From positions 1 through 64,000 of the forward strand of contig NZ_JARXWN010000011.1 of the NCBI RefSeq assembly GCF_029892965.1: 64,000 bases of DNA, written 5' to 3'. The stretch's first letter is position 1. Each line of letters opens with the position of its first letter. Both the position numbers and the translations under genes were made by a program. The notes under the pieces were generated by a model. The model searched no databases. It was given only the letters and a program-made list of their open reading frames with translations, and was not told the DNA's origin. The DNA comes from Dysgonomonas sp. PF1-14 (GTDB lineage: Bacteria > Bacteroidota > Bacteroidia > Bacteroidales > Dysgonomonadaceae). Shown in pieces: positions 1 through 29,000 of the stretch.

Positions 1-90
<90 letters not shown>

Positions 91-100
91 TTTAATGAAG

Positions 101-7845: not shown

Positions 7846-8619
7846 CTAATTGGTTAGTGCTTCTTTCAATGCTTGTACTGCTTCCTTTATATCCGGACTG
7901 TCTTTCAGTAGTGTGATAAACTTGCTGCCGATAATAGCTCCGCTTGCGTTTTCCTGTGCCGCTTCCAGTGTAGCTTTGTTTGATATACCGAAGCCTATCA
8001 GACGCGGATTACGTAGGTTCATACTGTTTATCCGGCGGAAGTATTCCTGCTTTTTCTCATCGAAGCTTTTCTGCGCACCTGTAGTAGCAGCAGACGATAC
8101 CATATAGATGAAGCCATCGGTATGTTCGTCTATCAGGCGTATGCGTTCGTCAGAGGTTTCGGGAGTAATGAGCATAACTACCTTGATGTCGTACTTATCG
8201 GCAATAGGCTTGTATTCATTGATGTAATCATCGAATGGCAGATCGGGAATGATAGCTCCGTCTATGCCTGTCTCTTTGCACTGTTTGCAAAAGTTCTCAA
8301 AGCCATATTGCATAATCGGATTGAGGTAACCCATCATTATTAATGGCATCTTCACATCCTTACGGATATCTTTCAGTTGCTCGAAGAGTACTTTTAGAGT
8401 CATACCGTTGTTGAGGGCGATTGTACCGCTCTCCTGTATAGTAGGCCCATCTGCCATCGGGTCGGAGAAAGGGATGCCGACTTCTATCAGGTCTATGCCA
8501 TTGGCTTCCAGTTCTCTGATAACGTTACATGTATCGTCCAGATGCGGGAATCCGGCAGTGAAATAGATAGAGAGTATATCTTTTTGCTTGTTCTCGAATA
8601 GTTGCTTAATCCTGTTCAT
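7846..8619 (-). CDS. trpA: Tryptophan synthase alpha chain
   Basis: A 257-residue TIM-barrel protein that cleaves indole-3-glycerol phosphate to indole and glyceraldehyde 3-phosphate in the last step of tryptophan synthesis. The motif [16 protein letters not shown] contains the catalytic acids at Glu46 and Asp57 (Glu49/Asp60 in the Salmonella enzyme). The phosphate-binding end, [11 protein letters not shown] and GAIIGSKFI, is present. It is the last gene of the operon; its start lies 14 bases inside trpF, indicating translational coupling. The length is normal for the family. Confidence 0.97.
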
Positions 8620-9235
8620 CTCTTAGTGCTTTTATGAATTGTTGTAATTGTTCTATATCCTTTAATCCGGGTGCTATCTCAAATTTGCTGTTGAGGTCTA
8701 TACCATAGAATTTAGGGTGGTTTATTTGCTTTATACTGTCGGCATCTTCTACAGATATTCCTCCGCTGAGGAAGAAGGAGGTATTACCTCTGTACTCACT
8801 CAGAATCTCCCAGTCGAACTTTTGCCCCGAGCCTCCATATTGAGGTGTTTTCGTATCGAAGAGAAAGTAGCTGCAAGAATCTTCATAGCTTTTTGTCTGC
8901 TCAAAATCAGCAGGTTTGGAAACATTGAATGCCTTTATTATTGGCATTGCCTTACTTAGCTCTTCGCAGAACTCGACCGATTCGTTGCCATGAAGTTGTA
9001 TCAGGTTGAGGTTATACAGATTGGTTTTTTCTATAATGTACTCGATACTTTCGTTTACAAATACACCTACACGCTCGATATAGGGAGGAAGCGCACTGTT
9101 CAGATCACTCAGCGTAAGGCTGCCGACAAAGCGGGGAGACTTCGGGTAAAAGATCATACCCATAAAATGAATAGGCAGTTTACCCAGCTCTTTTATATTG
9201 TCGGGGTACTTCATCCCGCAGACTTTTATATTCAT
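8606..9235 (-). CDS. trpF: Phosphoribosylanthranilate isomerase
   Basis: A 209-residue (beta/alpha)8 protein for the third committed step, isomerising phosphoribosylanthranilate to CdRP. The N-terminal KVCGMKYP holds the catalytic Cys at residue 6. The catalytic Asp lies in [14 protein letters not shown], with FDW following as expected. The C-terminal phosphate loop LSGGIS is present. Its start overlaps the stop of trpC by 4 bases (ATGA) and its end overlaps trpA. It is a separate gene here, not fused to trpC as in enterobacteria. Confidence 0.96.
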
Positions 9236-10017
9236 CGTAGTTGTGTTATAAAGTCTTCCAATGCCTTACCCGGATTTGCAGTCTTCATAAAGTTCTCGCC
9301 CATAAGGAATCCTTTATAGCCTACCGATTGCAGGTCTATAACGGTCTGTGGTTGTGATATACCGCTTTCCGATATCTTCACAAATTCGCTTGGTATCTTA
9401 TCTGCCAGATCGAAGGATATCTGTACATCGGTTACGAAGGTTCCCAGATTGCGATTGTTGACTCCGACTACATCCACTTGGTCGTTGATATGAGCAAGTT
9501 CTTGTTCGTTATGTATTTCAAGCAGAACATCCAAGCTTAGCTCTTTGGCTTCTTTGGCTAGTTGCTTTGTTTGCTCTATGCTAAGAGCCGAAGCAATAAG
9601 TAATATGGCACTCGCACCTTTCCATGCAGCCTGATAGAGTTGGTACTCATCTATCACGAAGTCTTTACGTAACAGTGGTGTTTTGGTCAGGCTTCTGGCT
9701 TTTTCCAGATCAACCAGATTACCACCAAAGAAGTCCATATCGGTCAGAACAGAAATAGCACTTGCCCCGTTTTGTGAGTAGAGAGGTATGACGTCTTCCA
9801 CCTTGGCATCCTTAAATATCCAGTCACGTGAGGGCGAGCGGCGTTTAAACTCGGCAATGATACCCGTAGGTGAGCTTATCAATGCTTCTTTGAATGACTT
9901 TGGCTTTTCGACGGAATCTACAATAAAGCGCATTATGTCATTGATGCTATACTGCTGTTTCTGTCTTTCGACTTCAAGCCGTTTGTTTGCTATGATCTTA
10001 TCTAGTATGTTTACCAT
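9232..10017 (-). CDS. trpC: Indole-3-glycerol phosphate synthase
   Basis: A 261-residue TIM-barrel protein that closes the indole ring. Family motifs seen: IIAEFKRRSPS near residue 53 (catalytic Lys), LLRKDFVIDEYQ, LLEIHNEQEL, VGVNNRNLGTF and ISESGIS. The length matches monofunctional TrpC. It overlaps trpF by 4 bases and follows the MFS gene across a 54-base gap holding a palindromic repeat (10030-10118). Confidence 0.97.
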   Translation of the reverse strand: MVNILDKIIANKRLEVERQKQQYSINDIMRFIVDSVEKPKSFKEALISSPTGIIAEFKRRSPSRDWIFKDAKVEDVIPLYSQNGASAISVLTDMDFFGGNLVDLEKARSLTKTPLLRKDFVIDEYQLYQAAWKGASAILLIASALSIEQTKQLAKEAKELSLDVLLEIHNEQELAHINDQVDVVGVNNRNLGTFVTDVQISFDLADKIPSEFVKISESGISQPQTVIDLQSVGYKGFLMGENFMKTANPGKALEDFITQLR

Positions 10018-10029
10018 AATAATGTTTTA

Positions 10030-10118
10030 GCCCCTCCAACCTCCCCAAGGGGAGGCTATCTGAGAGAGTATTTATATACTATTTTGAGGATTTCCCTCCT
10101 CCGGGGGTAAGGGGGCCT
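10030..10118. repeat. Palindromic intergenic element T, copy 1 (trpC/MFS)
   Basis: Left half GCCCCTCCAACCTCCCCAAGGGGAGGCT and right half of GATTT/GGGGG type form inverted C-rich and G-rich arms around an AT-rich centre. The same layout recurs at 13451-13561 and 15948-16055, always between trp operon genes and in the same orientation. Here the right half is translated as the C-terminal tail of the MFS protein (EAPLPPEEGNPQ). Confidence 0.75.
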
Positions 10119-11289
10119 CTTTTCTAAAGACTTTGATAACGGAAGCCAGTACTACAATGCAAATACCGAACAATCCGATGAGTGCATAAGAGTATCTTAG
10201 ATTGGTGGCACTCGAAATATAACCGATCAGTGGCGGCCCCATCAGAAATCCTAAGAAGCTAACGCTGGAAACGATAGTCAATGCTATACTGGTCGGTATT
10301 CTGGTCTTTTGTCCCGCTATACTGTAAATGGTTGGAACAATTCCCGCAGTACCGAATCCAATGATCATAAAGGCTATGATAGTAGTAATAAAATGAGGGA
10401 AAGCAACGGCTGTGAACAACCCTGTTGCTATGAGGATTCCTCCTGTCTGCACAATTCTCTTGCGCCCCCACTTTTGGGTAGCTTTATCTATCATAAAGCG
10501 TCCCGAAGCCATAGTCACCATATAGGCAGCCAACCCTATCGGTGCAAGATGTTTAGGTGTACCTACTACGTCTATCAGATACAGTCCGCTCCAGTCAGCC
10601 ATCGCTCCTTCGGCAGCCATTCCGCAGAAAGCAACCATTCCGAGCAGAAAGAGGAAGGTTTCGGGTTTACACTTCTTTTTCGCTGCAATCTCGGCAGGGT
10701 CTTTCTCTTTTTTATGGTCGGGTTGCAGATATCGTTTGTTGACAATCAGGGTAATGATGACAAGGACTCCGATAATGCCGAAGTGATATACTGGCTTGAG
10801 ATGCAGTGACGACATCAATAAACCGATTGCTGCCCCTGTTAGTCCGGCAAGGCTCCACCCACCATGAAAGGAAGCCATGATAGGTTTGTTGTACATAGCT
10901 TCTACGGTAACAGACTGTGTATTTATAGATATATTGCAGAAGTTACCAAAGAATCCGAAGACAATGAGGCTGATAATCAAAGCATATTCGCTGGAAGAAA
11001 CCCCTACAAGTAAGAGGGCTGCTACATAACCGATGAGCGCGACGGGCAGTATACGTTTACTTCCCAGTTTGGATACCAGAAAACCCGATATAGCCATCCC
11101 GCAGACTTGTCCGATGGGTATCATCAGCAAGATTGTTCCCCATGCGGCATCTCCTAATCCCAATGTAGTCTTAATATCGGGTATTCGGCTTGCCCAACTG
11201 GAGAAGCAGATTCCCGTACAAAAGTACAGGCAAAAGATTGCCATACGAATGCGGCTGTTAGAAGCTGTAATTGTGTTGTTTGATTCCAT
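10072..11289 (-). CDS. MFS transporter, 12 membrane segments
   Basis: A 405-residue major facilitator protein with about 12 hydrophobic segments. It resembles the YbjJ-like group, with GICFSSWASRIPDIKTTLGLGDAAWG at the N-terminus, a glycine-rich loop (GFLVSKLGSKR) after TM2 and a GRFMIDKATQKWGRKR loop between halves. The substrate is unknown; the trp operon position may suggest an aromatic compound, but this is inference. The last 15 or so residues (RKEAPLPPEEGNPQNSI) are encoded by a palindromic repeat element, so the native C-terminus was probably extended. Its start codon abuts the stop of the quinone reductase gene. Confidence 0.85.
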   Translation of the reverse strand: MESNNTITASNSRIRMAIFCLYFCTGICFSSWASRIPDIKTTLGLGDAAWGTILLMIPIGQVCGMAISGFLVSKLGSKRILPVALIGYVAALLLVGVSSSEYALIISLIVFGFFGNFCNISINTQSVTVEAMYNKPIMASFHGGWSLAGLTGAAIGLLMSSLHLKPVYHFGIIGVLVIITLIVNKRYLQPDHKKEKDPAEIAAKKKCKPETFLFLLGMVAFCGMAAEGAMADWSGLYLIDVVGTPKHLAPIGLAAYMVTMASGRFMIDKATQKWGRKRIVQTGGILIATGLFTAVAFPHFITTIIAFMIIGFGTAGIVPTIYSIAGQKTRIPTSIALTIVSSVSFLGFLMGPPLIGYISSATNLRYSYALIGLFGICIVVLASVIKVFRKEAPLPPEEGNPQNSI

Positions 11290-11861
11290 TATTTTTGTGC
11301 TATTCTCTCTATTTTATCCAACCATTTCTGTCTCTGTTCGGCAGTCGATGTTTTTATTGTTGCCAGATAGGTGGTTCGTATGTTCTTAATACCGCAAAAA
11401 GCGCCGATGTTCTTACGTATCATTTTGCCACCAATGTCTTTCACTATCCATTTGTAGTAGAATACAGGCGCATCCATTGTACTGATTATTTCGGATGTCT
11501 TTCCCGTAAATAATTTCTTCGGAAACGGCGATTTCTCCTGATACTCGAAGGTAAAGCCCGGCAGAAAGATGCGTTCGATAAAGCCTTTCAATAAAGCAGG
11601 AGGAGAAGCCCACCATGTAGGATATATCCAAACTATATGTTCAGCCCATTGTAATTTCTCCCATGCTTCTATCAAGTCGGGTTCAAGTTCGGTTCTCTTG
11701 CGATAGCCATATTGCAGGATCGGGTTGAAATCCATTTCTGCCAAAATGATTTCTTTTACTTCATTGCCTTTAGACAAAGAGCCTTTTTTATAGCTTTGGT
11801 GCAGCCCGAAGCAGAAGCTTTCTTTGTCGGGGTGACCGTTGATGATAAGTACTTTTTTCAT
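11289..11861 (-). CDS. Flavodoxin-fold NAD(P)H:quinone oxidoreductase
   Basis: A 190-residue protein of the MdaB/YwrO/KefF-like NAD(P)H dehydrogenase family. The N-terminal VLIINGHPDKESFCFGL is the FMN phosphate-binding region. WIYPTWWASPPALLKGFIERIFLPGFTFEY is the characteristic substrate/FMN loop of this family. A cytoplasmic two-electron quinone reductase is expected. Its start overlaps the preceding Sel1 gene by ATGA, so it is translated as part of the trp transcript. No direct role in tryptophan synthesis is known for the family. Confidence 0.85.
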   Translation of the reverse strand: MKKVLIINGHPDKESFCFGLHQSYKKGSLSKGNEVKEIILAEMDFNPILQYGYRKRTELEPDLIEAWEKLQWAEHIVWIYPTWWASPPALLKGFIERIFLPGFTFEYQEKSPFPKKLFTGKTSEIISTMDAPVFYYKWIVKDIGGKMIRKNIGAFCGIKNIRTTYLATIKTSTAEQRQKWLDKIERIAQK

Positions 11862-12442
11862 TGTTTATTTTGTCCTATAAGCCATAGTAACTCTTGTGCT
11901 GAACGATGATCAGAATCTTTGTTTGCCAAAAGAAGATATTCACGCGCTTTTTCAATATCCTCCTCTAACTCAATACCAGACAAATAAAGTTGTCCTAATA
12001 TAAAATTAGCTTCATCTATTTCATAAGGATAATTAGTCTCATCGTCATTCTTCCGTGAGATTGCTTCAAATATATCTACTGCTTTTGAAGTATCCTTTTC
12101 TATCCCTATTCCATATAAGTAGCATAAGCCTACACTAAAAGATAGAACAGGTCTGTTCCATTCTTCAGAGGATAACTCTTGTGATTTCTGATATAAAGTG
12201 AAAGCCTTTTTATAATCGCCTATATCTCTATATATAGTGGCGAGATTATGACTTGCTGTACTTGAACCTTTTTCTATTGCTTTTGTATAGTACTCTATAG
12301 CTAAAGAAATATCTTTTTCAATAATGATTTCTCCATTATCGTCCTTATAGCCACCATCATAAATATAGGCTAATTCATTTAAGGATTCTATATCTCCTTT
12401 ATTTGCATTCTCTTTCAGAATCTCAAAGCTAATCTTATCCAT
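11858..12442 (-). CDS. Sel1/TPR-repeat protein inside the trp operon
   Basis: A 194-residue soluble protein made of Sel1-like helical repeats: ESLNELAYIYDGG, SLAIEYYTKAIEKGSSTASHNLATIY, YKKAFTLYQKSQEL, SFSVGLCYLYGIG, and EANFILGQLYLSGIELEEDIEKAREYL. Such repeats mediate protein-protein contacts. No enzymatic motif is seen. The gene is AT-rich and sits tightly between trpD (4-base gap) and the quinone reductase (ATGA overlap). With the SUKH gene it looks like an accessory insertion in the operon. Confidence 0.8.
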   Translation of the reverse strand: MDKISFEILKENANKGDIESLNELAYIYDGGYKDDNGEIIIEKDISLAIEYYTKAIEKGSSTASHNLATIYRDIGDYKKAFTLYQKSQELSSEEWNRPVLSFSVGLCYLYGIGIEKDTSKAVDIFEAISRKNDDETNYPYEIDEANFILGQLYLSGIELEEDIEKAREYLLLANKDSDHRSAQELLWLIGQNKQ

Positions 12443-12446
12443 CGTC

Positions 12447-13445
12447 TTACGTGTTCAATACTAAAAACTTCCCAAATGTATCTTTCAATCGTCCGCTGTC
12501 TATCGATTCTCTCGCTTCTGCTATTGCATCGGTAAAAGATTTTCTAGGATCGATTGTCTGTATGGCTGTTGCCGCATTAGCTATTACCGCATTCTTTTGA
12601 GCCTCCGTTGCTGTATTATTAATTATATCATCAAATATCTTCGCTGCATCTTCGGGTGTTTCACCACCATATAATTGGGGTTCGGTTACTCTCGTGAAGT
12701 CTAACTGTTCGGGTGTGAAGATATTCTCTTCAAATTTATTAATAATTTTGAAATCTCCGGTCAGGGATATCTCATCATATCCATCGAGACTATGAACGAT
12801 AGCATAATCGACATCGGTTTGCTGATACATATACGAATAGAGCCGTGCCATTTTCAGATTGAAAACACCCAATACAGTGCGTTTCGGTTTAATAGGATTC
12901 ACTACAGGTCCCAGCATATTAAAGAATGTGCGTACACCTAATGCTTTACGAACAGGAGCGACTACTTTCAATGCATTGTTAAACAATGGAGCATGCATGT
13001 AAGCGATATTAGTCTGATCGATAGATCGTTCCAGTTTGCTTACATCCGAAGTGAATTTTACGCCATGTTGTTCCATCACATTTGATGCGCCGCTCACCGA
13101 TGTGGCACCATAGTTTCCATGTTTAGCTACTTTATATCCTGATGCCGCCACTACAAAGCAGGCGAGGGTGGATATGTTGAATGTGTTTTTGTTATCACCT
13201 CCCGTACCAACGATATCTATCGGATTATAGGCGGCAAGTGCATCAACATTTGCCCGTAAGTCGAGCAATGCATCAGAGAATCCGAGAAATTCATCCACAC
13301 TGATACTACGCATCAGGAATACACTAATGAATGCGGCAATTTCGGAATCGTTGTATTTACCATCCGCCATATTGGTCAGTATTCCCTTTGCCTCGTTGCG
13401 GTTGAGGTATTGGTGTTCGAAGAGTCTGTTGAGTATCTGTTTCAT
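12447..13445 (-). CDS. trpD: Anthranilate phosphoribosyltransferase
   Basis: About 332 residues from the ATG chosen here (MKQILNRLFEHQ). A TTG start 24 bases upstream would add eight residues encoded by a palindromic repeat and is rejected. It transfers phosphoribose from PRPP to anthranilate. Motifs: IVGTGGDNKNTFNIST (PRPP binding), KHGNYGATSVSG and MLGPVVNPIKP. It is monofunctional, with no fused TrpG domain. It follows trpB2 across an approximately 115-base gap filled by repeat element T copy 2. Confidence 0.96.
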   Translation of the reverse strand: MKQILNRLFEHQYLNRNEAKGILTNMADGKYNDSEIAAFISVFLMRSISVDEFLGFSDALLDLRANVDALAAYNPIDIVGTGGDNKNTFNISTLACFVVAASGYKVAKHGNYGATSVSGASNVMEQHGVKFTSDVSKLERSIDQTNIAYMHAPLFNNALKVVAPVRKALGVRTFFNMLGPVVNPIKPKRTVLGVFNLKMARLYSYMYQQTDVDYAIVHSLDGYDEISLTGDFKIINKFEENIFTPEQLDFTRVTEPQLYGGETPEDAAKIFDDIINNTATEAQKNAVIANAATAIQTIDPRKSFTDAIAEARESIDSGRLKDTFGKFLVLNT

Positions 13446-13450
13446 AAGCG

Positions 13451-13561
13451 GCCCCTCCAACCTCCCCAAGGGGAGGCTTCAAAGAGGGTGTTTTTTCTGT
13501 TATTTAATTCTTTATATAGTAGGCGTTAGCTCAAAAGTCCCCTTTGGAGGATTTAGGGGGC
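13451..13561. repeat. Palindromic intergenic element T, copy 2 (trpD/trpB2)
   Basis: Left arm GCCCCTCCAACCTCCCC with AAGGGGAGGCT at 13451-13478 and right arm AGTCCCCTTTGGAGGATTT with AGGGGGC at 13536-13561 enclose about 57 AT-rich bases. The right arm ends at the TAG stop codon of trpB2; the left arm ends 5 bases before the trpD start codon. It fills the entire gap between the two genes. Confidence 0.8.
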
Positions 13562-14925
13562 TAGGCCAATTTTTCCAACGCATCTGTTGTCTTGGCAATT
13601 TCCTCATCACTTAGTTCATGATTAGTCAGTTCGCCATCGAAATAACGGTCGTAAGCAGCCATGTCGATAAGTCCATGACCAGACAGGTTGAACAGGATCG
13701 TTTTTTGACGTCCTTCTTCTTTTGCTTTCAGTGCCTCCTGAATAGCGGCACAGATAGCGTGTGATGATTCGGGAGCAGGGATTATGCCTTCTGCTTTTGC
13801 AAACAGAATACCTGCTTCGAAAGTATCGAGTTGTTTCACATCTACCGCCTCTATATATCCGTCTTTCTTCAATTGGCTAACGATGGTTCCTGCTCCATGA
13901 TAACGAAGTCCTCCCGCATGAATATTAGCCGGTGCGAAGTTGTGTCCTAATGTGTACATTGGTAGGAGTGGGGTATATCCAGCCTCGTCGCCAAAATCAT
14001 ACTCGAATTTTCCACGCGTTAATTTGGGGCATGATGCAGGTTCTGCTGCGACAAGACGTACATCTTTGCCCTCGGTCAGTTTATGACGCAGGAATGGGAA
14101 GGTAATACCTGAGAAGTTAGAACCTCCGCCGAAGCAACCGATCACTACATCGGGATATTCGTCTGCCATTTCCATTTGCTTTTCTGCCTCGAGGCCGATG
14201 ATGGTCTGGTGAAGTGCAACGTGATTCAATACACTACCTAGTGTATATTTACAGTTTGGAGTATTCAAGGCAAGTTCGATAGCTTCTGAAATAGCTGTGC
14301 CAAGACTTCCCTGATAAGTCGGATTTTCGGTAATAATTTTACGCCCGGCTTTTGTACTCATACTCGGTGAGGCTATTACCTCCGCACCGTAAGTCTGCAT
14401 GATAGAACGGCGGTAAGGCTTTTGGTGATAGCTGATCTTCACCATATAGACTGCCAGATCCAAACCAAAGTGATTCGCAGCATATGATAAAGCTGCACCC
14501 CATTGCCCTGCACCGGTTTCAGTTGTGATATTTGTTACTCCCTGTTCTTTACAGTAATATGCCTGTGCTATTGCCGAGTTCAGTTTGTGTGAACCGACAG
14601 GGCTAACGCTTTCGTTCTTAAAATAGATATGTGCCGGAGTATCCAGTGCTTTTTCCAGACCGTAAGCACGTACCAATGGAGTAGGGCGATAGTTTTTATA
14701 TAACTCGCGTATTGGTTCAGGAATTTCTATCCAACGGTCGGTATAGTTTAATTCCTGCTTAGCAAGTTCAGTTGCAAATATTGGCTCCAGATCGCTCACT
14801 TCCAATGGCTTTTTTGTTGCCGGATGAAGTGGAAGCAGTGGCTTGTTTTTCATATCGGCTACAATGTTGTACCAGCTTCTTGGAATGTCATTTTCGCTTA
14901 ATAAGATTTTTTTGTTCATGGTCAT
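13561..14925 (-). CDS. trpB2: Tryptophan synthase beta chain, type 2 (TrpB2)
   Basis: A 454-residue PLP enzyme, about 60 residues longer than classical TrpB and matching the TrpB2/TrpB-like family. The PLP lysine is in SPVGSHKLNSAIAQ (about residue 110); the phosphate-binding glycine loop is GCFGGGSNFSG. The N-terminal extension (WYNIVADMKNKPLLPLHPATKKPLE) is typical of TrpB2. TrpB2 can convert indole or serine substrates without the alpha subunit in some organisms. A classical trpB lies at the head of the same operon, so the cell carries both. A second ATG two codons downstream is also a possible start. Confidence 0.93.
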   Translation of the reverse strand: MTMNKKILLSENDIPRSWYNIVADMKNKPLLPLHPATKKPLEVSDLEPIFATELAKQELNYTDRWIEIPEPIRELYKNYRPTPLVRAYGLEKALDTPAHIYFKNESVSPVGSHKLNSAIAQAYYCKEQGVTNITTETGAGQWGAALSYAANHFGLDLAVYMVKISYHQKPYRRSIMQTYGAEVIASPSMSTKAGRKIITENPTYQGSLGTAISEAIELALNTPNCKYTLGSVLNHVALHQTIIGLEAEKQMEMADEYPDVVIGCFGGGSNFSGITFPFLRHKLTEGKDVRLVAAEPASCPKLTRGKFEYDFGDEAGYTPLLPMYTLGHNFAPANIHAGGLRYHGAGTIVSQLKKDGYIEAVDVKQLDTFEAGILFAKAEGIIPAPESSHAICAAIQEALKAKEEGRQKTILFNLSGHGLIDMAAYDRYFDGELTNHELSDEEIAKTTDALEKLA

Positions 14926-14941
14926 TTATTTTATATTATTA

Positions 14942-15367
14942 TTAGATTCTTAAATCATTGCCTTGCTCATCCATTAATATTTGTCCTCGTATATACTCTT
15001 GGAAAGTTTTATTTGTATAATACAATTCTTCGGAATCATGCCAGAATTCAACAACTTCATCCTTTGGGGTAGATAAATCGAATCCTGCAAAGTCTCCGCT
15101 ATAATTGTCACCAAAGAATTTAATGTCTTTCGATAAATCACTTATATGATCTAATCCTAAGTCATCAAAATCAAACAAATCATCATATACTCTAAATTGA
15201 ATTTCTCTCAAAGTACCTGCACCTATTTCTTTCAGAAAATCTATATATCCTCTGGGGATATTTGGACAGTTATTTTCCAAGTCCTTAATTTGATCATTAG
15301 AAAAAACTTCTCGGTCATTTGATTTTTCATATTTACATAGAAATTCTATTTCTTTTTCGAAACTCAT
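14942..15367 (-). CDS. SMI1/KNR4 (SUKH) family protein
   Basis: A 141-residue acidic protein with the SUKH fold signature: IPRGYIDFLKEIGAGTL near residue 37, followed by DLFDFDDLG and FAGFDLSTP with a C-terminal VVEFWHD segment. In bacteria SUKH proteins are mostly immunity proteins against polymorphic or nuclease toxins. No toxin gene is adjacent: it lies between trpG and trpB2 with gaps of about 13-16 bases. An orphan immunity gene captured by the operon is an inference. Confidence 0.8.
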   Translation of the reverse strand: MSFEKEIEFLCKYEKSNDREVFSNDQIKDLENNCPNIPRGYIDFLKEIGAGTLREIQFRVYDDLFDFDDLGLDHISDLSKDIKFFGDNYSGDFAGFDLSTPKDEVVEFWHDSEELYYTNKTFQEYIRGQILMDEQGNDLRI

Positions 15368-15380
15368 AGGAATGTATTGT

Positions 15381-16016
15381 CTAATTATTTAATAGAAACT
15401 TCTTTACTATTGTTTCTCCAACAGGAGTTAGTACCGATTCGGGATGGAATTGCACGCCATGAATATCGTATTCTTTATGGCGGAGAGCCATAATCTGCCC
15501 ATTATCATCGACTGCTGTAATTTCAAGACAATCGGGAACATTCTTATTATCCACTATCCATGAGTGATAGCGGCCGACTTCGATCTCATTCTCCAAACCA
15601 TCGAATATATAATCGGACTTTGATATATTTATCTTTGTTGCAACACCATGATAAACATCTTCCAGATTGGTAAGTGTTGCTCCGAAAGCTTCCCCTATTG
15701 CCTGATGTCCTAAGCAAACTCCAAGTATCGGTTTTTTACCAGCATATTCTTTTATCAATGGCAAAAGCAATCCTGCTTCGGATGGAATACCCGGACCGGG
15801 AGATAAGATAATCTTATCATATTTTTCTATCTCTTCCAAAGATATTTTATCGTTTCTGTAAACATCCACGTCTGTATATTCTAGTTCTTTTACCAGATGA
15901 ACAAGGTTGTATGTAAATGAGTCGTAGTTGTCGAAGATGAGAATGCGGCCCCTCCTGACCTCCCCGGAGGGGAGGGACTGATCAGATTGATTCATTGTAT
16001 TTATAATTTTATTCAT
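15381..16016 (-). CDS. trpG: Anthranilate synthase glutamine amidotransferase, N-terminally extended
   Basis: A 211-residue class I glutamine amidotransferase that supplies ammonia to TrpE. Catalytic motifs: GVCLGHQAIGEAFG (nucleophile Cys) and HGVQFHPES (His/Glu). TrpG proteins usually begin directly at ILIFDNYDSFTYN; here about 24 residues precede it, and SLPSGEVRRGR is the translation of a palindromic repeat element (15948-16055). No ATG, GTG or TTG lies between the repeat and the conserved start, so the repeat appears to be translated. The start may be codon 1 or the in-frame ATG at codon 8. Confidence 0.95.
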   Translation of the reverse strand: MNKIINTMNQSDQSLPSGEVRRGRILIFDNYDSFTYNLVHLVKELEYTDVDVYRNDKISLEEIEKYDKIILSPGPGIPSEAGLLLPLIKEYAGKKPILGVCLGHQAIGEAFGATLTNLEDVYHGVATKINISKSDYIFDGLENEIEVGRYHSWIVDNKNVPDCLEITAVDDNGQIMALRHKEYDIHGVQFHPESVLTPVGETIVKKFLLNN

Positions 16017-16055
16017 TTTTTGTTGCTTAAGTCCCCCTTGGGGGATTTAGGGGGC
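15948..16055. repeat. Palindromic intergenic element T, copy 3 (trpG/trpE)
   Basis: Left arm GCCCCTCCTGACCTCCCC with GGAGGGGAGGGA and right arm AGTCCCCCTTGGGGGATTT with AGGGGGC enclose about 50 AT-rich bases. It starts inside the trpG coding region and ends two bases before the trpE stop codon. The start codons of trpG lie in its AT-rich centre. Confidence 0.8.
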
Positions 16056-16057
16056 GT

Positions 16058-17467
16058 CTAATTCTTTAATTCAACAGCTACTTTTACAGCTTTGGTTAAT
16101 GCTCCCAGTTTGTTTTTTACTTCCATAACTTCGGTTTCGGGATTCGATTTGGAAACGATTCCTCCTCCTGCCTGATAGTACAATGTATTGTTACGGCTAA
16201 GGAAAGTACGGATCGTAATAGCCTGATTTAGATCGCCGTTGAAACCGATATATCCGATGCAGCCGCCATATACACCCCGCATCTGTTTTTCTATATCACG
16301 TATCAGTTGCATAGCTCTTACTTTCGGTGCGCCCGAAAGTGTTCCCGCAGGAAAGGTATCGGCAAACACCGAAATATTATTGTGCTCTTTATTTACGATT
16401 CCGCTAACACGAGAAACGAGATGAATGACGTGGGAATAGAATTGTACATTTTTGTAGAACTCAACTTTTACGTCGTGGCAATTGCGACTCAAGTCGTTAC
16501 GAGCTAGATCGACAAGCATCACATGCTCGGCGTTTTCCTTTTCGTCTTTCAAAAGATTTTCGGATAATATACGGTCTTTTTCATCATCTCCTGTACGGAA
16601 ATAAGTGCCTGCGATTGGATCGATGTAAGCTTTACCTTTTGTTATTTTGCAATGTGTTTCGGGTGATGATCCGAAGATACGGAACGATCCGAAATCGAAA
16701 TAGAAAAGATAAGGAGAAGGATTAATGGAGCGGAGAGAACGGTAAACTTTAAAATCGTCTCCTGTAAATTTTTGAGTGAAGCAGCGAGAAAGGACTATCT
16801 GAAATACATCGCCACGTTTGCAATGGACGATTCCTTTCTTTATCATTTCCTGATGTTCTTCATCTGTAATCATCGATTGTTCGTGGCCGATGGTTTCAAA
16901 ATTGTAAGATGCTATATTGTTATTAGTAAGTATGGCTTCGAGTTCATGCATCCTTTCAGCTGTGCCATCTACAACGTTTTCTACTATTGTTAGTTCATTT
17001 TTCAGATGGTTGATAACAAGTATAAAACGATAAAGTATATAATAGAATTCGGGAATATCAGAGTTATTCAACTTGTTATTTCTTGGGTCAACAGCTTCGA
17101 AATAACGAATGGCATCATAAGAGGTGTAGCCAAAGAAACCGTTAATATTCGTTTTGTTTTCTCCCTGTACATCAAATTGATGAATGAAGTCATTAAATTT
17201 ATCAGTCAGCTTTTCTGATTGGGATAGCTTTTCTTTCTTTATAGTATTATCCGGATAAGTACATGTTATTTCATCATTATCCATTTTGAATCTAGCTATC
17301 GGGCTGATACCTATAAAAGAATAACTGTTTTCGCCACCATGATAATCTGAACTCTCCAGTAAGGCCGATTCGGGATAGATATCCCTGACCTTCAAATAAA
17401 GACCAACTGGGGTTTGGAGATCGGCTAGGAGGTTCTTGGTTCTGACATTTATCTTATATCGTTGCAT
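16058..17467 (-). CDS. trpE: Anthranilate synthase component I
   Basis: A 469-residue chorismate-utilising enzyme making anthranilate with TrpG. The N-terminal region has QTPVGLYLKVRD and ALLESSD, the LLES motif known as part of the tryptophan feedback site. The C-terminal catalytic domain has DPIAGTYFRTG, VDLARNDLSR, PAGTLSGAPKVRAM and GGCIGYIGFNGD. The length is in the normal range. It starts 8 bases after trpB and ends at repeat element T copy 3. Confidence 0.97.
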   Translation of the reverse strand: MQRYKINVRTKNLLADLQTPVGLYLKVRDIYPESALLESSDYHGGENSYSFIGISPIARFKMDNDEITCTYPDNTIKKEKLSQSEKLTDKFNDFIHQFDVQGENKTNINGFFGYTSYDAIRYFEAVDPRNNKLNNSDIPEFYYILYRFILVINHLKNELTIVENVVDGTAERMHELEAILTNNNIASYNFETIGHEQSMITDEEHQEMIKKGIVHCKRGDVFQIVLSRCFTQKFTGDDFKVYRSLRSINPSPYLFYFDFGSFRIFGSSPETHCKITKGKAYIDPIAGTYFRTGDDEKDRILSENLLKDEKENAEHVMLVDLARNDLSRNCHDVKVEFYKNVQFYSHVIHLVSRVSGIVNKEHNNISVFADTFPAGTLSGAPKVRAMQLIRDIEKQMRGVYGGCIGYIGFNGDLNQAITIRTFLSRNNTLYYQAGGGIVSKSNPETEVMEVKNKLGALTKAVKVAVELKN

Positions 17468-17475
17468 ACTATCGG

Positions 17476-18666
17476 CTATTTATTATTTTCGAAATGTTGA
17501 ATATATGTTTCCATATCCTTATCTCCTCTGCCGGATAAGCAAAGTACTACTACGTCATCTTTCTCAAAACTCATTTTATCTAAGGCTCCAAGTGCATGAG
17601 CCGACTCAATAGCAGGGATAATTCCTTCCAGTTTTGTCAACTCGAATGCTGCTCCCAGAGCTTCATCATCAGTAACAGCTAATACTTGCGAACGGCCTGT
17701 TTTTGCCAGATGGGCATGCATCGGGCCGATACCAGGATAGTCGAGACCCGCCGAGATGGAATAAGGCTCTTCAATTTGTCCGTCTGCTGATTGCATGATC
17801 AGCGTCTTACTCCCATGTATGATACCCATTTTTCCGAGATGGATAGTTGCAGCCGATTCACCGGTGTCTATACCTTTACCTGCTGCCTCAGCCAATACTA
17901 TCTTTACATTGGGTTCGTCTATAAAATGAAAAATTGATCCCGCCGCATTGCTCCCTCCGCCTACGCAAGCCATAACATAATCAGGAGTTTCACGCCCTTC
18001 TTTTTCCAATAATTGTTTGCGGATTTCTTCGCTGATAACCGATTGAAGGCGGGCTACCATGTCGGGGTAGGGATGAGGGCCTACCACAGAGCCGATTACA
18101 TAATATGTATCGGACGGGTTACTGCACCAGTCGCGTATAGCTTCATTCGTAGCATCTTTCAATGTCATATTACCGCTGGTTACAGGGATAACCGTTGCTC
18201 CCAGCATTTCCATTTTCTGTACATTCAGCTTCTGGCGTTCTATATCTGTTTTGCCCATATATACAATACATTGCATATTCATCAGTGCGCAGACTGTTGC
18301 TGTTGCTACACCATGCTGTCCGGCTCCTGTTTCTGCTATAATGCGGGTTTTCCCCATTCGGCGGGCAAGAAGTACCTGCCCTATAGCATTATTTATCTTA
18401 TGCGAACCTGTATGGTTGAGGTCTTCCCGTTTCAGATAGATTTTGCAGCCGTATTTTTCTGATAATCTGTTTGCAAGATAAAGGGGTGAAGGACGACCTA
18501 CATAGTCTTTAAGAAGTGCATTGTATTCTTCTTGAAATGTAGAGTCGTTAATTACTTTCATGTAAGAATTTTTCAATGTTTCCACATTATCGTAAAGTAT
18601 CTCAGGGATATATGCCCCTCCAAACTCTCCATAAAAACCGTTGGTGTCTACTGCAAATTTTTCCAT
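17476..18666 (-). CDS. trpB: Tryptophan synthase beta chain (classical TrpB1)
   Basis: A 396-residue PLP enzyme that joins indole and serine. The lysine forming the Schiff base is in [15 protein letters not shown] (about residue 87). The phosphate-binding loop is [21 protein letters not shown] and the C-terminal CLSGRGDKD are also present. It is the first structural gene after the leader peptide and attenuator. The position of a trpB at the front, with trpA at the far end about 10 kb away, is unlike the enterobacterial order. Confidence 0.97.
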
Positions 18667-18692: not shown

Positions 18693-18725
18693 AAAAAAAG
18701 CCTGTCGTGAGTTACGACAGGCTTT
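18693..18725 (-). terminator. trp attenuator (intrinsic terminator in the trp leader)
   Basis: A perfect 12-bp stem (AAAGCCTGTCGT with ACGACAGGCTTT, loop AACTC) is followed on the minus strand by a run of seven T, 26 bases before the trpB start. It lies after a leader peptide rich in Trp codons. The segment CTCACGAC (18704-18711), which forms the loop edge and 3' arm, can instead pair with GTCGTGAG (18766-18773) at the end of the leader peptide gene. The two pairings are mutually exclusive, as in classical attenuation. Confidence 0.88.
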
Positions 18726-18766
18726 GTATTTTATACTTTCCATTCATTAATACATACCGGCTTTGC

Positions 18767-18826
18767 TCACGACCTTTTGAGTTGAGAGTGCCACCACCAA
18801 AATGTATTTGTTAATAGAAAATTCAT
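18767..18826 (-). CDS. trpL: trp operon leader peptide (WWW)
   Basis: A 19-residue ORF reads MNFLLTNTFWWWHSQLKRS with three consecutive Trp codons (TGG TGG TGG). It begins about 15 bases downstream of the predicted transcription start. Its stop codon overlaps the antiterminator arm GTCGTGAG (18766-18773). By the classical mechanism, ribosomes stalling at the Trp codons when Trp-tRNA is scarce would free that arm to pair with the terminator's 3' side and let transcription into trpB proceed. The mechanism is inferred from sequence. Confidence 0.88.
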   Translation of the reverse strand: MNFLLTNTFWWWHSQLKRS

Positions 18827-18847
18827 TCTTCTTTCTTTTTGTTTTTG

Positions 18848-18877
18848 CAAAGGTATAAAAAAAATCAAATATACAAA
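18848..18877 (-). promoter_or_regulatory. trp operon promoter (Bacteroidota type)
   Basis: On the minus strand the -7 box TACCTTTG (18848-18855) and an upstream TTTG (18874-18877), separated by 18 bases, fit the Bacteroidota primary sigma consensus TTTG-N19-TAnnTTTG. It is placed correctly upstream of the trpL leader peptide. Confidence 0.75.
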
Positions 18878-18896: not shown

Positions 18897-19328
18897 TTAT
18901 AATTCTACTTCCTCATATTCTGAAATGACCTTTCTCCAGTCATCCGGTATAGGCATCGACGACTGTGTCTGTGCATTATATGTAACGAAGACCGACTGGC
19001 AGCGGCACTTGATCTCTCCATTTTTTACATTCCTTATCTGTTGCAGAAAAACACCGCTCTTATCCCCCAGTTTGATAACTTTGGTATCGACCGCTATTTT
19101 CTCTTTATAATAGATCGGCGAAAAGAAATCGACCTCTATGTGTGCTACTACAATTAATCCCTCTGTCCAACTGACAGATGCCGGTCTGATATTATCGAAA
19201 TAGGTAGTTTTACCCAAATCGAAATAGCTGAAATATATATTATTATTGATATGTCCGAGGGCGTCGATATCCCCAAAACGTATTTGGATAGGAAGCGAAG
19301 CCTTAAATGTTTCCGGTTTAATTTCCAT
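18897..19328 (-). CDS. Acyl-CoA thioesterase, hotdog fold (4HBT/YbgC-like)
   Basis: A 143-residue hotdog-fold protein. IQIRFGDIDALGHINNNIYFSYFDLGKTTYF carries the family's conserved Asp/His/Asn region for thioester hydrolysis. EVDFFSPIYYKEKI and VFLQQIRN continue the fold. It probably hydrolyses an acyl-CoA or acyl-ACP in the cytoplasm; the substrate is unknown. It is the third gene of the recF-DUF721-thioesterase unit (8-base gap). Confidence 0.88.
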   Translation of the reverse strand: MEIKPETFKASLPIQIRFGDIDALGHINNNIYFSYFDLGKTTYFDNIRPASVSWTEGLIVVAHIEVDFFSPIYYKEKIAVDTKVIKLGDKSGVFLQQIRNVKNGEIKCRCQSVFVTYNAQTQSSMPIPDDWRKVISEYEEVEL

Positions 19329-26058: not shown

Positions 26059-29000
26059 TTAAAAACCTAATCTAACAGACATAGTAAACTGCCTAGGTAC
26101 AGGTGCTGCAACTCCTCCTGATTGCACAAACTCCGGATCTTGTCCGTTCAATTTCTTATCTGCATACAATAGAAATAGGTTTGTTGCTAAGAATCTGAGT
26201 GACGCGTTTTTAACGTGAGGTCCTAACCATGCTTTTGGTACATCATAATTCAATGAAATATCTTTCAAGCGAATGAAGTCTCCTTTGGCTACGCGTGCGC
26301 TTGAGTAGTTGTATGTGCTATAAGCATTGGTCATATTGTTGTACTTACTGTATTGACGAGAGCTCAATATTACAGGAATATCGGTGTATTCTTCATCACC
26401 TGGTATTATCCAGCGGTTCTTAAATTCTTTTGGTGTTGCTGTTAAATCGGTATAACGTGCTCTGAATACAGGGTTTAACCGTATAATGTTTCCAAACGAA
26501 TAGGTGAAAAATATTCCAAACGAAAAGTTTTTATAACGGAATGTATTCTGGAATCCACCGTGTGTAGTAGGTTCTTTGGGACCTTCATATTTCAAGTATC
26601 CGAGTTTGTCCGGATCACTCATTTGCAGGTTTATACCTGTAGTTGTCTCTTTGCCATTTTCGTCTAAGAATATAGGTAGACCAACCTCATTCAATCCGAC
26701 AAACGGAACAGAGAATATACCGCGTTGAGGATACCCCTCAAGTGGTGCTACACCTCTAACCAGACTGAAAACTCTGGTGCCGGAAGTTATAAGTTTTGTA
26801 ATTTTAGTTTTGGAGTGACTGAATATAAAGTCTGTAGTCCAACTAAAATCTTTCGTCTGTATATTCTTGGTTTTTAATGTCGCCTCAATTCCCCATGTGC
26901 TCATTTCGGCATCATTAGCACGTTTCATAATTTCTCCACCTACACCCCAAGAATTGACATATCCGATAAGGTCATAGTTGTTTCTATCGTACCAACTAAA
27001 ATCTAGATTTATGCGGTTATTGACAAATCCGGCCTGAAGGTTTAAACTCAACTCGTGTTTCTTTTCATAGGTCAGTTCTGTATTGGCCAGATAATTTATT
27101 CTTAAACCGGTTTCCCGTATATCTGTAAACGGACGATATGGATTATATGCACCAATTTCAATTTCGCTACTGGACATAGAGCCCGGAGGTAAATCCCCGG
27201 TCATACTGTAGCTACCTTTGATTTGTAAATGGGAAACAGCAGGTTGCCATTTTTTGAAGAATTCTTCTTCATAAATATTCCATCCTAAACCAATATTCCA
27301 TGTTGGAAGCCAACGGGCGCTTTTTGATCTACCCAATCTGTTGGATCCCTCGTAGCGTACTGTCCCCGATAATACATATTTGCCTAAGTAGCTATACGTT
27401 CCCTGAGCAACATACGCGGCATTTCTTGTTCGTCCGTTAACCATTCCGTAATATGAGCTGCCTTGTTCTATTCCTTGTTTGAAATACTCATATACATAAA
27501 ATGGAATTTCACCCATTGAATATTGCATTCCCCATCCTGTAAAATTAGCTTCCGATCTGTTTGCTGAATTCAGCTCCATACTGGCAAATGCGTTAATAAT
27601 ATGTACATCGTTAATTGTTTGATTCCAATCGGCTGATAAGCGCATGTCATAACCGATCATTTTGTTATCATTACGGTACCAGATACCGCCATTAGGCAAA
27701 ATAGTAACCGGAAGTTCGTATGGATAATCAGGATTCTTATACAGTAGCGGATTTGTTTTTTGTATAGTAGGATCATCCATTGCTCTATATGATTTTGCCT
27801 GATTTGAGTCATCATAAATATGATGATCTCTAGTGGTCAGGTCATATTTGAATGCACCCAGTCCTCTTAATGTAAGGTTTGATATTGGACTGTAAGTAAT
27901 TTCAGCCTGTAATTTTAGTGTTGACACATCATATTCCATCCTGTTATTCTCCAATTCATGTATAATATTGAAAGGAGCATAGTTTGATTGATAGAATTCA
28001 TTCGCATCCAAAGCTCTTGATGTATTCAGGGCGTAACTATACGGGTTAATATCAAAATCTCTCTTTACCTGTCCTGTCACAGCATTTACATCAGATGATA
28101 TTGTTCCCGGTGCTTTTTGGTTACGGTATTGTCCCATAGCGCCGATCTTGAAAGATAGGTTATGCAAAACTTTATGTGTTGCATTTATATTGGCTGTATA
28201 ACGTTTTACATTACTTTGTTTGTACCATCCCGGATCAAGCATAGCTCCTAGAGATGCGTATATCGTAGATTTTTCGGAGCCTGTTGAAATACTTATTGTA
28301 TGATTGTGCATAACACTATTTTGAAAAAGCTCATCAAACCAGTTTGTATTCCTCATCTCAGCCTGTCTGAGGTAAGCGTTTGCCGCTTCCTGTGAATGGT
28401 CGAGCATGAAAGTGCCGGTAGCAGGATTGTATGTGTTCATTAACTGATACATTTTTCCATATATTCCACTGTCTGCAGAACGAAACGACTGAGCAAAACT
28501 TAGCCATCCTTTCGATTCCATTTCCCTGTAAATACCCATCTGTTGCTGAGAATCCATTATATTGAAATCACGGTACATAGGCTTAACCCTTATAGAGAAT
28601 TCTCCTGTATAATTAATGGAATGTTGTCCAGGTACTCCTCTCTTCGTGGTAATAACGATCACACCACCCATAGCTCGTGCTCCATATACTGAAGTTGCAG
28701 ATCCATCTTTCAGAATTTGGATATCGGCAATGTCTTCAGCATTTATCCCCGCTATGGCCGAACTGATCAATGTATTGGCATTCCCTGAGGATAAATCGTC
28801 AGCACTCACATTGATAGCATCTTCCATAATAACTCCGTCAACAACCCATAATGGTTTTGAGTCTCCATAAATGGAAGTGGCTCCACGCACTCGGATAACC
28901 GGAGCAGCACCGAATGTCCCCGATACATTTTGAATAGAAACCCCTGCTGAACGGCCTTCTAATGCACGGGTTATTTCAGGCATACCGTCTATCTTAATAT

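What the first reader, a model, noticed from the sequence alone, without database searches (positions are those of the whole stretch)
18693..18877. Complete trp attenuation region with WWW leader peptide in a Bacteroidota operon
A consensus promoter, a 19-aa leader peptide with TGG TGG TGG, an antiterminator arm (GTCGTGAG, 18766-18773) overlapping the leader stop, and a 12-bp terminator whose loop and 3' arm (CTCACGAC, 18704-18711) can pair with it all occur in 180 bp. This is ribosome-mediated attenuation read directly from sequence, in a phylum where it is less documented than in enterobacteria.
Basis: partly seen in the sequence, partly recalled or inferred. Interest (0 to 1): 0.7.

Follow-up and report, generated by a model that had tools for sequence, protein, structure and literature searches.

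The report
Tryptophan attenuator with mirror-image antiterminator
A short stretch of RNA in front of a bacterium's tryptophan genes looks like a switch that stops transcription when tryptophan is plentiful; this kind of switch is already catalogued in this phylum, although the pairing that would keep it switched on seems to be arranged the opposite way from the textbook E. coli version.

Summary
On the minus strand before trpB lie a Bacteroidota-type promoter, a 19-codon ORF (MNFLLTNTFWWWHSQLKRS), a 12-bp terminator with a T-run, and a strand GTCGTGAG across the leader stop that pairs perfectly with the terminator's loop and inner 3' arm (CTCACGAC). It is a member of Rfam RF01692 'Bacteroid-trp' (53.5 bits, cut-off 49), published for Bacteroidetes in 2010, so the phenomenon is not new.

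Relatives support the reading: 72 of 81 trpB-upstream loci have tandem Trp codons, and TGA stops face CTCA-type loops, TAA stops mostly CTTA/CTTG, though on the trpB tree the loop base changes only once. Folding with ribosome footprints gives three states for the window: naked or at stop, the terminator; stalled at Trp, the antiterminator, until the stem is nearly complete. This depends on strand A; 62 of 116 leaders switch likewise.

Less expected is the topology. The his, phe and ilv leaders of the same genome, and E. coli trp, use a strand that captures the terminator's 5' arm; this trp family captures loop plus 3' arm. I did not find that in print in nine searches; supplements were not readable. 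A member of a known kind with one testable twist. No experiment was possible.

The parts
18874..18877 (-). -33-type promoter element TTTG
   Evidence: sequence; 18-nt spacer to the -7 element; consensus TTTG / TAnnTTTG quoted in PMC7366714
18848..18855 (-). -7-type promoter element TACCTTTG (TAnnTTTG)
   Evidence: TAnnTTTG present before the leader in 68 of 68 testable loci, window included (of 71 parsed), 3.1 expected by shuffling
18767..18826 (-). leader peptide ORF MNFLLTNTFWWWHSQLKRS*, three consecutive TGG codons at 18799-18791
   Evidence: WW(W) leader in 72 of 81 trpB-upstream loci and 45 of 45 phylum loci
18716..18849 (-). match to Rfam RF01692 Bacteroid-trp, including the hairpin (P1) over the Trp codons
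   Evidence: 53.5 bits, cut-off 49
18766..18773 (-). antiterminator strand A, GTCGTGAG, overlapping the leader stop codon
   Evidence: pairs with 18704-18711
18697..18725 (-). intrinsic terminator hairpin, 12 bp, loop AACTC; T-run 18699-18693
   Evidence: double changes at 12 of 12 pairs in 73 aligned leaders
18704..18711 (-). CTCACGAC: loop (CTC) plus inner 3' arm (ACGAC) of the terminator, partner of strand A
17476..18666 (-). trpB, first structural gene of the controlled operon
   Evidence: TIGR00263, 588.6 bits, cut-off 392.45
7846..17467 (-). rest of the trp gene cluster on the same strand: trpE, trpG, SMI1/KNR4-like, TrpB-like PLP enzyme, trpD, Sel1-repeat, flavodoxin-like, MFS, trpC, trpF, trpA
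   Evidence: Pfam and NCBIfam; ORFs; that all are one transcript is inferred

Best explanation
It is a tryptophan-specific, ribosome-mediated transcription attenuator of the trpB-first operon, a member of Rfam family Bacteroid-trp. With enough Trp-tRNA the ribosome runs to the TGA and covers strand A (GTCGTGAG); the terminator hairpin forms and transcription stops before trpB. When Trp-tRNA is short the ribosome stalls on TGG TGG TGG, opening the P1 hairpin but leaving strand A free; A then pairs with the terminator's loop and inner 3' arm (CTCACGAC) as these leave the polymerase, so the hairpin cannot start and the operon is read. Without translation P1 forms and the terminator wins. Shown here: the sequence elements, their conservation, and the computed pairing states. 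Inferred: stalling, timing, and tryptophan dependence in cells.
For: RF01692 over its cut-off. A short ORF with tandem Trp in 72 of 81 trpB-upstream loci (54 with TGGTGGTGG). Over 116 parsed leaders the stop-region strand pairs better with loop+3' arm (mean score 17.1) than with the 5' arm (10.3); at most 5% of shuffles did as well in 84 of 116 against 3 of 116, and in 47 against 2 of 73 non-redundant ones. TGA stops go with CTCA/TCAC loops in 65 of 66, TAA stops with CTTA/CTTG in 26 of 44. Loop-only pairs, which the terminator does not use, covary: 24 cells changed on both sides, shuffled mean 8.9, 0 of 500. Window folding at 5 nt before stem completion: maximum terminator probability 0.001 or less with the ribosome at Trp 1-3, 0.999 or more at stop or naked. 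Complementing strand A lowers the stalled leaders with terminator probability under 0.5 from 63 to 7 of 116, 34 to 6 of 73 non-redundant; shuffled octamers give 63 of 580.
Against: No transcript or reporter data. With the whole stem exposed the terminator wins in 113 of 116 even when stalled, so the model needs a kinetic window; E. coli trp behaves alike (0.967). Only 62 of 116 leaders (33 of 73 non-redundant) switch between stall and stop under my fixed rule, and the stalled terminator is suppressed in only 12 of 39 of the TAA/TAG trpB set. On the trpB tree the loop base changes once and the stop's middle base 7 times; among 56 clean loci the G-C/A-U switch is one change. The measures least affected by relatedness are unremarkable: pairs with double changes 87 of 500 shuffles (A:B) and 217 of 500 (loop only), pair types 14 and 36 of 500. 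RNAalifold on the A-to-B region predicts the inner terminator stem, not A:B. The Rfam model ends in the terminator's 5' arm, so it does not test A:B. 19 of 116 leaders lack an ungapped A:loop helix.
Confidence: 0.88

Rival explanations
1. Same attenuator, but the antiterminator that matters is a conventional one: the 3' part of P1 (GGTATGTATT) pairs with the sequence at and just before the terminator's 5' arm (AATACAAAGCC), and A:loop pairing is an accessory clamp.
For: The stalled-state fold of the window contains both A:B and an upper helix that joins these two stretches.
Against: The upper helix is not in the consensus fold of 48 relatives, but neither is A:B. The stop-region strand (stop -15 to +18 only) pairs with the 5' arm beyond shuffles in 3 of 116 loci. 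Changing A alone abolishes the switch in the window (192 of 200 shuffled octamers).
Confidence: 0.15
2. The A:loop pairing does not block the terminator; it is a loop contact that coexists with the hairpin (pseudoknot) and tunes termination, or a by-product of strand A being a near-copy of the 5' arm.
For: In L064, L074, L076 and L082 the match is mainly to the loop plus two or three 3'-arm bases; A resembles the 5' arm GTCGT.
Against: In the window 5 of 8 A:B pairs use bases that the terminator stem needs (sequence), and stall/stop states switch in folding. ViennaRNA does not model pseudoknots, so this is not excluded.
Confidence: 0.1
3. The leader peptide is a functional small protein, or the terminator is a constitutive end of the upstream transcript, with no attenuation.
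For: A trans role is reported for peTrpL of Sinorhizobium meliloti (PMC7298713, start of abstract in search listings). A thioesterase-like gene ends at 18897 on the same strand (TIGR00051 below its cut-off).
Against: A promoter motif precedes the leader in 68 of 68 testable loci, Trp codons and the stop-strand pairing are conserved, and leaders with His, Phe/Tyr and Ile/Leu/Val codons precede the matching genes in the same genome.
Confidence: 0.03

Closest known systems
Rfam RF01692 Bacteroid-trp (Weinberg et al. 2010, PMC2864571)
   Same: Same phylum, same place, leader region and P1 hairpin; 53.5 bits over a cut-off of 49.
   Different: The Rfam model stops in the terminator's 5' arm, so terminator loop, 3' arm and the A:B pairing are outside it. 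Only the table entry was seen in the paper; its supplement was not readable.
E. coli trp attenuator (trpL)
   Same: Trp codons in a short leader, terminator, and the same order of states in the folding test (stalled 0.129, naked 0.999, stop 0.998 at 3 nt before stem completion; at 5 nt all three are low).
   Different: In E. coli the leader strand (searched from stop -15 to up to +60) pairs best with the terminator's 5' arm (score 15, loop+3' arm 9.5); here with loop+3' arm (21, 5' arm 8.5). trpB is first here, trpE in E. coli.
his, phe (prephenate dehydratase) and ilvD leaders of the same genome
   Same: Short leader with the matching codons, a strand at the leader stop, terminator, stall/stop switch in folding.
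   Different: Strand pairs with the terminator's 5' arm (conventional); no Rfam match. Structured hisG and pheA 5' elements without Rfam hits are mentioned for Flavobacteriaceae in PMC9723704 (passages).

Membership tests
Rfam RF01692 Bacteroid-trp | covariance-model score at or above the gathering score | tested here: met
   53.5 bits against 49; full model 1-131; one match in the genome
Rfam RF01692 Bacteroid-trp | lies upstream of tryptophan synthesis genes in Bacteroidota | tested here: met
   trpB starts 30 nt after the terminator stem; nearest trpB relatives are Dysgonomonas
ribosome-mediated amino-acid attenuator | short ORF with tandem cognate codons | tested here: met
   WWW in 19 codons; tandem Trp in a short ORF in 72 of 81 trpB-upstream loci
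ribosome-mediated amino-acid attenuator | intrinsic terminator before the first structural gene | tested here: met
   12-bp stem, T-run; 98.7% of cells paired, double changes at all 12 pairs
ribosome-mediated amino-acid attenuator | alternative pairing that excludes the terminator and is freed by a stalled ribosome | tested here: met
   met in silico for the window before the stem is complete; 62 of 116 leaders under one fixed rule; consensus fold does not show it
ribosome-mediated amino-acid attenuator | antiterminator uses the terminator's 5' arm (as in E. coli trp) | tested here: not met
   not the main pairing: strand A pairs with loop+3' arm; an upper helix touches the 5' arm in the window's fold but not in the consensus of 48. 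This is a feature of the E. coli design rather than of all attenuators
ribosome-mediated amino-acid attenuator | tryptophan-dependent termination in vivo | not testable with these tools
   needs transcript or reporter data

The most novel reading that the evidence does not exclude
Bacteroidota trp leaders use a mirror-image antiterminator: a near-copy of the terminator's 5' arm, placed across the leader stop codon, seizes the terminator's loop and inner 3' arm just as they leave the polymerase, so that the stop codon itself is part of the switch. The same genome's his, phe and ilv attenuators use the conventional 5'-arm design.
Probability: 0.55. Interest if true: 0.5.

Novelty: new member of a known kind. 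Interest (0 to 1): 0.35.

Why it matters
The switch itself is catalogued, so the window adds one more member. If the mirror-image pairing is real, it shows that attenuators can work by capturing the terminator's later half, which demands that folding beats the polymerase within a few nucleotides, and it offers an in-genome comparison with three conventional leaders. Together with those leaders it suggests that leader-peptide attenuation is a routine way of controlling amino-acid operons in this group.

Tried and rejected
Rejected: conventional 5'-arm antiterminator as the main pairing (3 of 116; window 8.5 against 21). Rejected: other Rfam leader families; Thr_leader and Phe_leader score 22.2 and 20.4 bits against cut-offs of 55.

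Negative or mixed: RNAalifold of the A-to-B region in 48 relatives gave only the inner terminator stem. Stop/loop covariation counts overstate independence. The sigma-70-type promoter scan was no better than shuffles (30 found, 34.4 expected) and uses the wrong consensus for this phylum. For the naked ilv leader the terminator probability at 5 nt was only 0.430. No leader was seen by eye upstream of three of four aspartate-kinase matches; the fourth was not looked at.

Dropped rows: 10 of 81 trpB loci were not parsed (L034, L053, L057, L073, L078, L091, L093, L098, L106, L107; L053, L078 and L098 have under 150 nt upstream; L034 reads Trp-Arg-Trp; L073 has a distant stop). The 116 parsed leaders (71 + 45) hold one duplicate, L072 = L198. 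For some searches, 73 of 116 were kept (under 85% identity, stop-terminator gap 70 or less); for, 48 of those 73 (window and L031-L110 rows with a full strand A). In some of the 116 the stop that the script found lies outside strand A (for example L050, L080), which counts against my totals. his: 31 loci examined (the window's own plus the 30 returned of 54 matching genomes); 26 gave a His leader (four none, one false pick), 25 of 26 favour the 5' arm (L160 does not, 18.5 against 19). phe: 30 loci (of 56 matches); 23 gave a leader and favour the 5' arm, five gave none, L169 and L174 were mis-parsed. The strand windows differed: stop -15 to +18, -18 to +24, -15 to +60.

Literature searches; in the listings and passages seen I found no description of the loop+3'-arm antiterminator; supplements were not available.

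Full report
What is there. On the minus strand, between a thioesterase-like gene (ends 18897) and trpB (18666-17476), the window holds a TTTG / TACCTTTG promoter, a 19-codon ORF with TGG TGG TGG, a strand GTCGTGAG across its TGA, and a 12-bp terminator with a T-run 30 nt before trpB. The leader folds far better than shuffles (z -6.1), and a pairing as strong was reached in 35 of 20000 shuffles.

What it is. Rfam's Bacteroid-trp family RF01692 matches 18849-18716 over its full model with 53.5 bits, cut-off 49. The family is in the table of Weinberg et al. 2010 as a cis-regulatory candidate of Bacteroidetes (PMC2864571, table passage). PMC6414381 (one passage) already likens it to the E. coli trp leader, and PMC9723704 (passages) reports strong clues for leader-peptide attenuation before amino-acid operons in Flavobacterium psychrophilum. 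It is the only match in this genome. In the window's family 78 of 101 genomes match at E 0.1 or better (37 over the cut-off); in the phylum sample 46 of 392 match at E 0.001 (42 over the cut-off); both searches used filters that lose weak matches. The nearest trpB genes are from Dysgonomonas (92-93% identity). The gene order is trpB, E, G, SUKH-like, TrpB-like, D, Sel1-like, flavodoxin-like, MFS, C, F, A.

Comparative evidence. Of 81 trpB-upstream loci (window plus 80), 72 have a short ORF with tandem Trp and 54 carry TGGTGGTGG; of the 9 without TGGTGG, 3 are cut by contig ends. TAnnTTTG precedes the leader in 68 of 68 testable loci, window included (3.1 expected). Leader plus terminator could be parsed in 71 of 81, and in 45 of 45 phylum loci, giving 116, of which two (L072, L198) are the same sequence. 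Among these the stop-region strand pairs with loop+3' arm far better than with the 5' arm (84 against 3 of 116; 47 against 2 of 73 non-redundant). TGA stops face CTCA/TCAC loops in 65 of 66; TAA stops face CTTA/CTTG in 26 of 44, CTCA/TCAC in 6 and other loops in 12; non-redundant: 35 of 36, and 16, 6 and 10 of 32. On the non-redundant alignment of 73, 88.8% of A:B cells pair (shuffled 84.4, 0 of 500; slid versions 58.6 or less), and loop-only pairs show 24 double-changed cells (shuffled 8.9, 0 of 500). The terminator shows double changes at all 12 pairs. A helix of 6 bp or more that uses at least 3 loop bases overlaps the stop in 93 of 116, lies elsewhere in 4 and is missing in 19. In a few leaders the frame no longer stops at strand A, yet the strand or its core is still there: L077, L084, L226, L227, L050 with the GTGAG core only, and L080. 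That points to selection on RNA rather than on the stop codon. In L080 and other leaders with an ACCT loop the pairing needs a bulged A, which I see by eye only. Two family-f4 loci (L240, L241) look conventional.

Limits of this evidence. On a trpB tree of 71 loci the stop's middle base changes 7 times and the loop base once; among the 56 clean loci the switch from TGA/CTC to TAA/CTT is a single change. L097 looks like a second, reverse change by eye, but the script scored its loop '?'. The two measures least swayed by relatedness do not stand out: pairs with double changes were reached in 87 of 500 shuffles for A:B and 217 of 500 for the loop pairs, pair types in 14 and 36 of 500. RNAalifold on the A-to-B region finds the inner terminator stem, not A:B. 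So the covariation is there but rests on few events.

Mechanism. I folded the RNA left free by a ribosome (3' edge taken as P-site first base +16, an assumption from general knowledge) at successive polymerase positions. For the window, 5 nt before the stem is complete, the maximum terminator probability is 0.001 or less with the ribosome at any of the three Trp codons, and 0.999 or more with no ribosome or with the ribosome at stop. With the whole stem exposed the terminator wins in every state, so the switch must act in the short time before the stem is complete. Under one fixed rule 62 of 116 leaders switch between stall and stop, 60 of them also terminate when naked; 33 of 73 non-redundant ones switch. 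Complementing strand A lowers the count of stalled leaders with terminator probability under 0.5 from 63 to 7 of 116 and from 34 to 6 of 73; shuffled octamers give 63 of 580. The window with a shuffled octamer kept antitermination in 8 of 200. E. coli trp gives the same order of states 3 nt before completion (0.129 stalled, 0.999 naked, 0.998 stop); at 5 nt all three are low (0.033, 0.285, 0.292), at 0 nt all are high. The position of the crossover thus differs between leaders, and I chose 5 nt from the window.

Topology. In E. coli trp the same pairing function finds its best helix with the terminator's 5' arm (15 against 9.5). In this genome the hisG leader (MNKTMHHHHFILLPCGK), the prephenate dehydratase leader (MKNFSYTYFFFFYFYFKR) and the ilvD leader (MTNCFLHIVLVIDILLVGQNK) likewise place a strand at the leader stop that pairs with the 5' arm. 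Among relatives, 26 of 31 his loci gave a leader and 25 of these favour the 5' arm; 23 of 30 phe loci gave a leader and all 23 favour the 5' arm; ilvD was not compared. None of L111, L112, L196 has an Rfam match. The trp leaders are mirror-image: the strand is a near-copy of the 5' arm and captures loop plus inner 3' arm. Rfam's model does not reach that part. My nine literature searches did not show it in print; supplements were out of reach.

Verdict. What is worth a bench test is the pairing partner, which can be checked with one mutation and its compensating partner.

Noticed in passing
L111 (G000:C2, upstream of the hisG match that starts at 350829, minus strand): His leader MNKTMHHHHFILLPCGK* with GGTAAGT at the stop pairing with the terminator 5' arm; no Rfam match.
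   Followed up: yes
L112 (G000:C4, upstream of the prephenate dehydratase match at 266779, plus strand): Phe/Tyr leader MKNFSYTYFFFFYFYFKR*; GACAGGATTTTGTA after the stop pairs with the terminator 5' arm (14 bp with wobbles); no Rfam match.
   Followed up: yes
L196 (G000:C5, upstream of the ilvD match that starts at 27535, minus strand): Branched-chain leader MTNCFLHIVLVIDILLVGQNK*; TGAGAAAGG pairs with terminator 5' arm CCTTTCTCA; conservation not tested.
   Followed up: partly
window 13561-14925 (-): A second, TrpB-like PLP enzyme (TIGR01415, 608.6 bits, cut-off 518.85) sits inside the trp cluster between trpG and trpD.
   Followed up: no
window 10072-12442 and 14942-15367 (-): Non-trp genes within the trp cluster: SMI1/KNR4-like, Sel1-repeat, flavodoxin-like and MFS genes; whether relatives share them was not examined.
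   Followed up: no
window 18697-18725 (+): The terminator also scores as terminator-like on the plus strand.
   Followed up: no
L034, L107: L034 leader reads Trp-Arg-Trp (TGGCGGTGG); L107 keeps a terminator-like hairpin before trpB without tandem Trp codons in the 330 nt searched.
   Followed up: no
window 1-92 (+): 5S rRNA cut at the window edge (RF00001).
   Followed up: no
G006:C2:35488-35587 (+): A second, weak RF01692 match (35 bits, E 0.048) in one same-genus genome.
   Followed up: no
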